This document shows positions 51,230 to 51,544 of a stretch of 64,000 nt of DNA, in pieces; positions within the stretch are counted from its first letter, which is position 1; each line of letters opens with the position of its first letter. Under the pieces are notes generated by a model, which ran no database searches, was not told the origin of the DNA, and saw only the letters and a list, made by a program, of their open reading frames with translations. A program made the position numbers and the translations under genes. The DNA is from Halalkaliarchaeum sp. AArc-CO (GTDB lineage: Archaea > Halobacteriota > Halobacteria > Halobacteriales > Haloferacaceae): positions 1,860,001 through 1,924,000 of the forward strand of contig NZ_CP087723.1 of NCBI RefSeq assembly GCF_024972735.1. Direction: 5' to 3'.

Positions 51230-51350
51230 GGGCCGAGAGGGATTTGAACCGGAACCAGACGTGCTCGCTCCCGCCGGTCGCTGTGCGCGACTGGTAGGAT
51301 TCAAATCCCTCTGTATGCGTTTTCACTGCTCACTTCGTTCGCAGGAAAAC
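51230..51350 (-). repeat. tRNA-linked repeat unit 2 next to tRNA-Lys, 121 bp
   Basis: Identical to 51351-51471. It opens with the 21-base copy of the tRNA-Lys 3' end (51230-51250). It then has the core GAACCAGACGTGCTCGCT (51252-51269), GCGCGACTGGTAGG (51285-51298) and the inverted T-arm TTCAAATCCCT (51300-51310). It ends in a hairpin, GTTTTC-a-CTGC with GCAG-GAAAAC, around TCACTTCGTTC (51330-51340). Confidence 0.93.
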
Positions 51351-51471
51351 GGGCCGAGAGGGATTTGAACCGGAACCAGACGTGCTCGCTCCCGCCGGTC
51401 GCTGTGCGCGACTGGTAGGATTCAAATCCCTCTGTATGCGTTTTCACTGCTCACTTCGTTCGCAGGAAAAC
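51351..51471 (-). repeat. tRNA-linked repeat unit 1 next to tRNA-Lys, 121 bp
   Basis: Perfect tandem copy of 51230-51350, directly abutting the 3' end of the tRNA-Lys gene. The 21-base tRNA 3' end therefore occurs three times at a 121-base period: 51230, 51351 and within the tRNA at 51472. Confidence 0.93.
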
Positions 51472-51544
51472 GGGCCGAGAGGGATTTGAACCCCCGACCG
51501 TCTGGTTAAAAGCCAGACGCTCTGCCGGGCTGAGCTATCGGCCC
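51472..51544 (-). tRNA. tRNA-Lys (UUU)
   Basis: 73 bases, no encoded CCA, no intron. Acceptor GGGCCGA pairs with TCGGCCC. The anticodon arm is TCTGG-CTTTTAA-CCAGA with anticodon TTT. The T arm is GGGGG-TTCAAAT-CCCTC (one G-T pair). Two tandem units begin at its 3' end. Confidence 0.96.

What the first reader, a model, noticed from the sequence alone, without database searches (positions are those of the whole stretch)
51230..51544. Two perfect 121-bp units stacked on the 3' end of tRNA-Lys, each carrying a copy of that tRNA's last 21 bases
Seen directly: units 51230-51350 and 51351-51471 are identical, and the 21-base tRNA-Lys 3' end recurs at a strict 121-base period (51230, 51351, 51472). 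The copy stops inside the T arm, two bases before the T loop. Duplicated tRNA 3' ends are normally the attachment-site scars of tyrosine-recombinase integration, but here only about 100 non-coding bases lie between them. This suggests a miniature integrative element using the tRNA as attB, which can stack in tandem, or a tRNA-derived structured RNA array. I know of no named family with this build.
Basis: partly seen in the sequence, partly recalled or inferred. Interest (0 to 1): 0.82.

Follow-up and report, generated by a model that had tools for sequence, protein, structure and literature searches.

The report
Hairpin cassette arrays behind archaeal tRNAs
The two repeats behind this tRNA-Lys gene belong to an apparently undescribed family of gene-less DNA hairpin cassettes that stack up behind tRNA genes throughout the salt-loving archaea, each carrying a direct and an inverted copy of part of the tRNA it sits behind, and this looks like a mobile element of unusual build.

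Summary
In detail: two identical 121-bp units follow tRNA-Lys, each ending in an exact copy of the tRNA's 3' end. They belong to a large family. On the tRNA strand each unit reads H1 hairpin, A (inverted copy of the local T-loop/T-stem), H2 hairpin, T (copy of tRNA positions 53-73). In this genome 17 of 43 tRNAs carry such tail copies, 15 exact, none upstream. A pattern taken from H2 alone hit 125 places in genome contigs; 101 lay 65-433 bp 3' of a tRNA, all on its strand. Among 393 genomes of the phylum, all 37 positives were in the same order. A and T follow the local tRNA, while near-identical H2 cassettes recur behind different tRNAs. Tail copies decay away from the tRNA (27 arrays to 0), and sister species differ by whole units. 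Stems show no G.U preference and loops are GNA/GNNA, pointing to DNA rather than RNA hairpins. Best reading: trans-mobilised DNA hairpin cassettes inserted at tRNA 3' ends. The enzyme is unknown; resident Cas1 or Y1 transposase is not needed. I found no named family.

The parts
51471..51544 (-). tRNA-Lys(TTT), the anchor; its 3' part (51471-51491) is the master copy T0
   Evidence: ARAGORN, Rfam RF00005 70.5 bits
51350..51470 (-). unit 1 (tRNA-proximal), 121 bp: H1-A-H2-T
   Evidence: TRF period 121, 100% identity; parsed
51440..51470 (-). H1 hairpin of unit 1, TTTTCCTGC-GAACGAAGTGA-GCAGTGAAAAC, directly after the discriminator base
   Evidence: motif GCGAACGAAGTGAGC at 51449-51463
51421..51432 (-). 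A of unit 1: GAGGGATTTGAA, inverted copy of T-loop and T-stem 3' side of tRNA-Lys
51371..51420 (-). H2 hairpin of unit 1 (type I cassette, CCTACCAGTCGCGCACAGCG...GAGCACGTCTGG)
   Evidence: type I core pattern
51350..51370 (-). T1: exact copy of tRNA-Lys positions 53-73
51229..51349 (-). unit 2, identical to unit 1 (H1 51319-51349, A 51300-51311, H2 51250-51299, T2 51229-51249)
51217..51228 (-). 12-nt start of a further H1 (TTTTCCTGCGAA): truncated third unit, or remnant of the original trailer
20356..20428 (-). tRNA-Arg(CCG), second anchored example in the window
20244..20355 (-). one 112-bp unit behind tRNA-Arg(CCG): H1 20326-20355, A about 20307-20317, H2 20265-20306, T 20244-20264 (exact copy)
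   Evidence: locus empty in the same-genus genome G001

Best explanation
Each unit is a gene-less DNA cassette of about 85-190 bp that is inserted at the 3' end of a tRNA gene and leaves that tRNA intact. Shown by sequence: unit order tRNA-[H1-A-H2-T]n; T is a direct copy of local tRNA positions 53-73; A is an inverted copy of local positions about 54-65; H1 and H2 are hairpins. Also shown: T copies far from the tRNA are more diverged than near ones, and sister species differ by whole units with the native flank abutting a tail copy. Inferred: new units enter next to the tRNA and push older ones outward; the active form is single-stranded or extruded DNA hairpins; a recombinase acts in trans, most likely a tyrosine recombinase using the T-loop/T-stem; T arises with each insertion, and A is kept complementary by hairpin-templated copying or by need for the A-H2-T hairpin. 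H2 cassettes are exchanged among tRNA loci through the conserved T-loop flanks.
For: Anchoring: all own-genome hits lie 3' of tRNAs; 101/125 places found with an H2-only pattern are 65-433 bp downstream of a tRNA, 101/101 same strand. Tracking: A complements position 57 in 93% against 56% for other tRNAs and position 59 in 98% against 72%; rare T-loops TTCAACT, TTCAAGT and TTCAATT have matching A. Cassette exchange: a 49-nt identical H2 behind Asp, Gly and Arg tRNAs; H2 similarity does not depend on tRNA identity (16% against 15% of pairs above 0.8) while H1 does (4.3% against 0.13%). Polarity: first T less diverged than last in 27 arrays, the reverse in 0 of 57 (13 to 0 at the strictest cut). 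Turnover: G000 and G001 differ by whole proximal units at Asp and Gly(GCC), and by filled/empty sites at Arg(CCG) and Phe. DNA form: G.U 20 and 21 against A.C 72 and 69 in H1 and H2 stems, tRNA control 82 against 3; no G.U in 43 units at G57 tRNAs; 70% GNA triloops, and GNYA exceeds GNRA 32 to 10, matching the extra-stable DNA minihairpins with GNA/GNNA loops (PMC4686876). PF00589 is present in 59 of 60 relatives.
Against: No enzyme, circle or excision product was seen. A tyrosine recombinase acting on an element with its own att copy would not by itself tailor A and T to each tRNA. Two-species comparison cannot polarise gain from loss, because recombination between T copies would delete whole units exactly. 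Gene conversion from the tRNA could also keep near T copies fresh. None was found in viral contigs or phages, and one partial hit in plasmids. Conserved C.A mismatches in H2 inflate the A.C count.
Confidence: 0.5

Rival explanations
1. No dedicated enzyme: the arrays are DNA-hairpin satellites made by host replication and recombination. Hairpins at the tRNA end cause template switching (creating A and keeping it complementary), short-homology duplication creates T and tandem units, and gene conversion through the conserved T-loop sequence spreads H2.
For: A:T arms are near-perfectly Watson-Crick with no G.U preference (G.U 5/762, A.C 10/1142), as template copying would give; perfect tandem copies; H1 is local while H2 is shared.
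Against: Strict anchoring at the discriminator base, one orientation, and start near position 53 in over two hundred units suggest a specific mechanism; conserved internal mismatches in H2 across an order suggest recognition by a protein.
Confidence: 0.25
2. Functional structured RNA: the units are transcribed with the tRNA and the hairpins regulate tRNA maturation, 3' processing or termination, or give stable trailer RNAs.
For: Strong folding (z -5.5), same-strand placement directly after the discriminator base, locally matched A and T. tRNA 3' trailer fragments are known as stable RNAs in eukaryotes and tRNA-derived fragments were reported from archaeal small-RNA sequencing (PMC3432209).
Against: No G.U preference in stems, in contrast to tRNA stems of the same loci; GNYA rather than GNRA tetraloops; presence or absence varies at orthologous tRNAs within a genus; the predicted RNA of tRNA plus unit keeps acceptor and T arm in only 6 of 143 cases; no Rfam family.
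Confidence: 0.15
3. Ordinary attachment-site scars: decayed ends of tyrosine-integrase elements whose bodies were lost, leaving tandem tRNA tails.
For: Haloarchaeal integrative elements do insert at these tRNA ends: integrase genes lie between tRNA tail and array in L090, L163, L181, L183, L190.
Against: In those loci the boundary repeat spans only about position 60-73, shorter than T; scars would not share a conserved H1-A-H2 interior across an order, nor recur as exact 87-176 bp units.
Confidence: 0.06

Closest known systems
tRNA-targeting tyrosine-recombinase integrative elements of archaea (reviewed in PMC8371274)
   Same: Insert at tRNA 3' ends, leave the tRNA intact and its 3' end duplicated, can stack in tandem.
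   Different: Unit is about 85-190 bp with no integrase; the same H2 occurs behind many tRNA identities; it carries an inverted locally matched T-loop copy and two hairpins.
PATEs and SMRs (small non-coding mobile repeats of Haloquadratum, PMC3119063)
   Same: Haloarchaeal, short (SMR-A about 110 bp), transposase-free, palindromic; SMR mobilisation is enigmatic.
   Different: As reported, PATEs and SMRs cause no target duplication and SMRs target other mobile elements; these units duplicate 21 bp of tRNA and sit behind tRNAs. Y1 transposase is absent from several genomes with units.
Integron cassette arrays (attC hairpins)
   Same: Tandem cassettes growing from one fixed end; a folded DNA hairpin with an inverted-repeat base stem (PMC2727003); some T copies have one extra T-loop base that would be extrahelical in the A:T stem.
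   Different: No ORF in the cassette, no cis integrase or attI, base stem copied from the local tRNA; strand-specific recombination not testable here.
CRISPR arrays and casposons
   Same: Repeat (T) duplicated with each unit, apparently newest units next to a fixed leader-like end (the tRNA); casposon target sites can overlap tRNA 3' ends (PMC4046053).
   Different: Units are related hairpins, not unique spacers; no terminal inverted repeats as in casposons; the richest genome (G000) has no Cas1.

Membership tests
tRNA-targeting tyrosine-recombinase integrative element | Direct duplication of the tRNA 3' end at both element ends | tested here: met
   T copies exact in 139 of 222 units
tRNA-targeting tyrosine-recombinase integrative element | Encodes its integrase | tested here: not met
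   Units are about 85-190 bp without a convincing ORF
tRNA-targeting tyrosine-recombinase integrative element | One element lineage matches one att sequence | tested here: not met
   Near-identical H2 behind different tRNA identities
PATE / IS605-derived element | No target duplication | tested here: not met
   21-bp tail duplicated
PATE / IS605-derived element | Y1 transposase available in the cell | tested here: not met
   No Y1_Tnp match in G014, G034, G054, G056 although they have 6-10 hits to the unit
Integron cassette | Hairpin attC-like site with inverted-repeat base stem | tested here: met
   A-H2-T folds with A:T base stem
Integron cassette | Cassette gene and integrase with attI in cis | tested here: not met
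   No ORF in the cassette; the anchor is a tRNA
Integron cassette | Recombination of one folded strand | not testable with these tools
   needs biochemistry
Casposon / CRISPR adaptation | Cas1-family integrase | tested here: not met
   No PF01867 match in G000, completeness 99.9%
Casposon / CRISPR adaptation | Repeat duplicated and new units at the leader-like end | tested here: inconclusive
   T divergence gradient 27 to 0; gene conversion not excluded
Structured RNA family | Compensatory change including G.U pairs | tested here: not met
   G.U not above other mismatches; tRNA control shows strong G.U preference
Structured RNA family | Transcript | not testable with these tools
   no RNA-seq available

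The most novel reading that the evidence does not exclude
A new class of gene-less, array-forming mobile DNA: cassettes that lengthen from a tRNA gene like CRISPR or integron arrays, take a direct and an inverted copy of the local tRNA at each insertion, and move as DNA hairpins built from GNA/GNNA-loop, tandem G.A motifs, driven by an unidentified haloarchaeal recombination activity.
Probability: 0.35. Interest if true: 0.9.

Novelty: new variant of a known kind. Interest (0 to 1): 0.75.

Why it matters
tRNA 3' ends are the classic docking sites of integrating elements. A family of gene-less hairpin cassettes found behind tRNAs across an archaeal order, tailored to each tRNA and apparently ordered by age, would be a readable record of insertions and a lead to an unknown recombination activity. 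It also warns that tRNA 3' fragments in haloarchaeal genomes are not automatically phage scars. Because the arrays differ between sister species and occur in Haloferax genomes, gain and loss can be tested in laboratory strains.

Tried and rejected
Rfam at gathering cut-offs found only the tRNAs and an unrelated sot0042. ORFs in the unit are short overlapping frames without support. Viral contigs with the H2 pattern: none; phages: none; plasmids: one 41% hit. Cas1 and Y1 transposase were tested as resident enzymes and rejected as required; tyrosine recombinases are present nearly everywhere, so presence is uninformative. I first expected A to copy the whole acceptor strand; the profile shows complementarity only to about position 65. 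A k-turn (L7Ae) reading of H2 was considered and dropped because short H2 forms lack it and the stems behave as DNA (inference, not tested). Literature searches found no description; subscription papers are not covered.

Full report
OBSERVATION. The window is part of a 3.0-Mb replicon of a haloarchaeon (G000:C2:1860001-1924000). On the minus strand tRNA-Lys(TTT) ends at 51471 and is followed by two identical 121-bp units and 12 bp of a third. Each unit ends in the last 21 nt of the tRNA. Chance is excluded: 15 of 43 tRNAs of this genome have an exact 21-nt tail copy within 1 kb downstream, none upstream.

ANATOMY. Read on the tRNA strand the unit is H1-A-H2-T. H1 starts right after the discriminator base and folds as a hairpin. 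A is an inverted copy of the tRNA's T-loop and T-stem 3' side. H2 is a 30-80 nt hairpin. T is a direct copy of positions 53-73. A can pair with the T of its own unit (hairpin A-H2-T) or with the preceding T (hairpin T-H1-A). Hairpin tips are dominated by tandem GA/GA plus a GNA or GNNA loop, the loops of extra-stable DNA minihairpins (PMC4686876).

A GENOME-WIDE AND ORDER-WIDE FAMILY. BLAST of the unit gave 19 places in the genome, every one at the 3' side of a tRNA gene; 17 of 43 tRNAs have at least one tail copy within four mismatches, some up to six, others show only remnants. In 60 relatives 52 have matches, and 27 of 29 fetched loci carry a tRNA next to the match or nearby. An H2-only pattern, free of tRNA sequence, found 125 places in genome contigs: 101 lie 65-433 bp 3' of a tRNA, all on its strand. 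Of the other 24 about half are at the edge of the stored stretch; several of the rest lie behind an integrase gene and a tRNA tail, or next to tRNAs missed by ARAGORN. In 393 genomes of the phylum all 37 positives are in the same order; 0 of 312 outside.

TRACKING. Across 170 units A complements the local tRNA at the variable T-loop positions 57 (93% against 56% for other tRNAs) and 59 (98% against 72%), with a decreasing signal to position 65 and none in the acceptor stem. Permuting tails among units lowers the match by about 20 s.d.. T is exact in 139 of 222 copies; 16 of 23 insertions fall at T-loop positions 57-58. H2 is shared across tRNAs: identical 49-nt cassettes occur behind Asp, Gly and Arg tRNAs, each with local A and T. 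H1 is tied to tRNA identity, H2 is not.

DNA OR RNA. In tRNA stems of the same loci G.U exceeds A.C 82 to 3. In H1 and H2 stems G.U (20, 21) is below A.C (72, 69), and in A:T arms 5 against 10. At G57 tRNAs all 43 arms have C, none T. Tetraloops are GNYA more than GNRA, 32 to 10. Folded as RNA, the unit would disrupt the tRNA in 137 of 143 cases. This points to DNA structure or template copying, not to a conserved RNA. It is indirect: conserved C.A mismatches add to the A.C counts, and minimum-energy folds ignore cotranscriptional folding.

DYNAMICS. Between G000 and G001 (same genus) orthologous tRNAs differ in presence and number of units. At Asp and Gly(GCC) G000 has exactly one extra proximal unit and the older unit aligns from the T|H1 junction; at Arg(CCG) and Phe one genome is empty and its flank matches the sequence after the distal T of the other. 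In 57 arrays of two or more units the first T is less diverged than the last in 27 and never more; this stays 13 to 0 when only near-exact copies count. The simplest reading is insertion next to the tRNA; deletion between T copies and gene conversion are not excluded.

ENZYME. G000, richest in units, has no Cas1. Several genomes with many units have no Y1 transposase. Tyrosine recombinases are present in 59 of 60, which is permissive only. Haloarchaeal integrase elements do use these tRNA ends, but with a shorter repeat.

VERDICT. Gene-less DNA hairpin cassettes that accrete at tRNA 3' ends, apparently undescribed in the open literature searched. What is solid: anatomy, anchoring, tracking, distribution, lability. 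What is inferred: direction of growth, DNA intermediate, recombinase. I file it as a new variant of tRNA-targeted mobile DNA, with a substantial chance that it deserves a class of its own.

Noticed in passing
L090, L163, L181, L183, L190: Tyrosine-integrase genes end just before a tRNA tail that is followed by an H1-A-H2-T unit, so integrative elements seem to have inserted between tRNA and array.
   Followed up: partly
L006, L037, L045, L060, L062, L112, L211 and others: T copies have a recurrent single-base insertion at T-loop positions 57-58 (such as TTCACAAT) while A stays complementary to the 7-nt loop; it would be an extrahelical base in the A:T stem.
   Followed up: partly
L035 and L222 (tRNA-Ser(GGA) of G000 and G001): Both species have tRNA-H1-A without H2 or T, a possible minimal or decayed form.
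   Followed up: no
L117:4174-4211: An apparently degenerate tRNA-Gly 3' part precedes a unit with no intact tRNA found nearby, possibly a displaced array, an intron-bearing tRNA or a pseudogene.
   Followed up: no
window 18675-18835: Match to Rfam sot0042 (sense overlapping transcript RNA, 118.7 bits).
   Followed up: no
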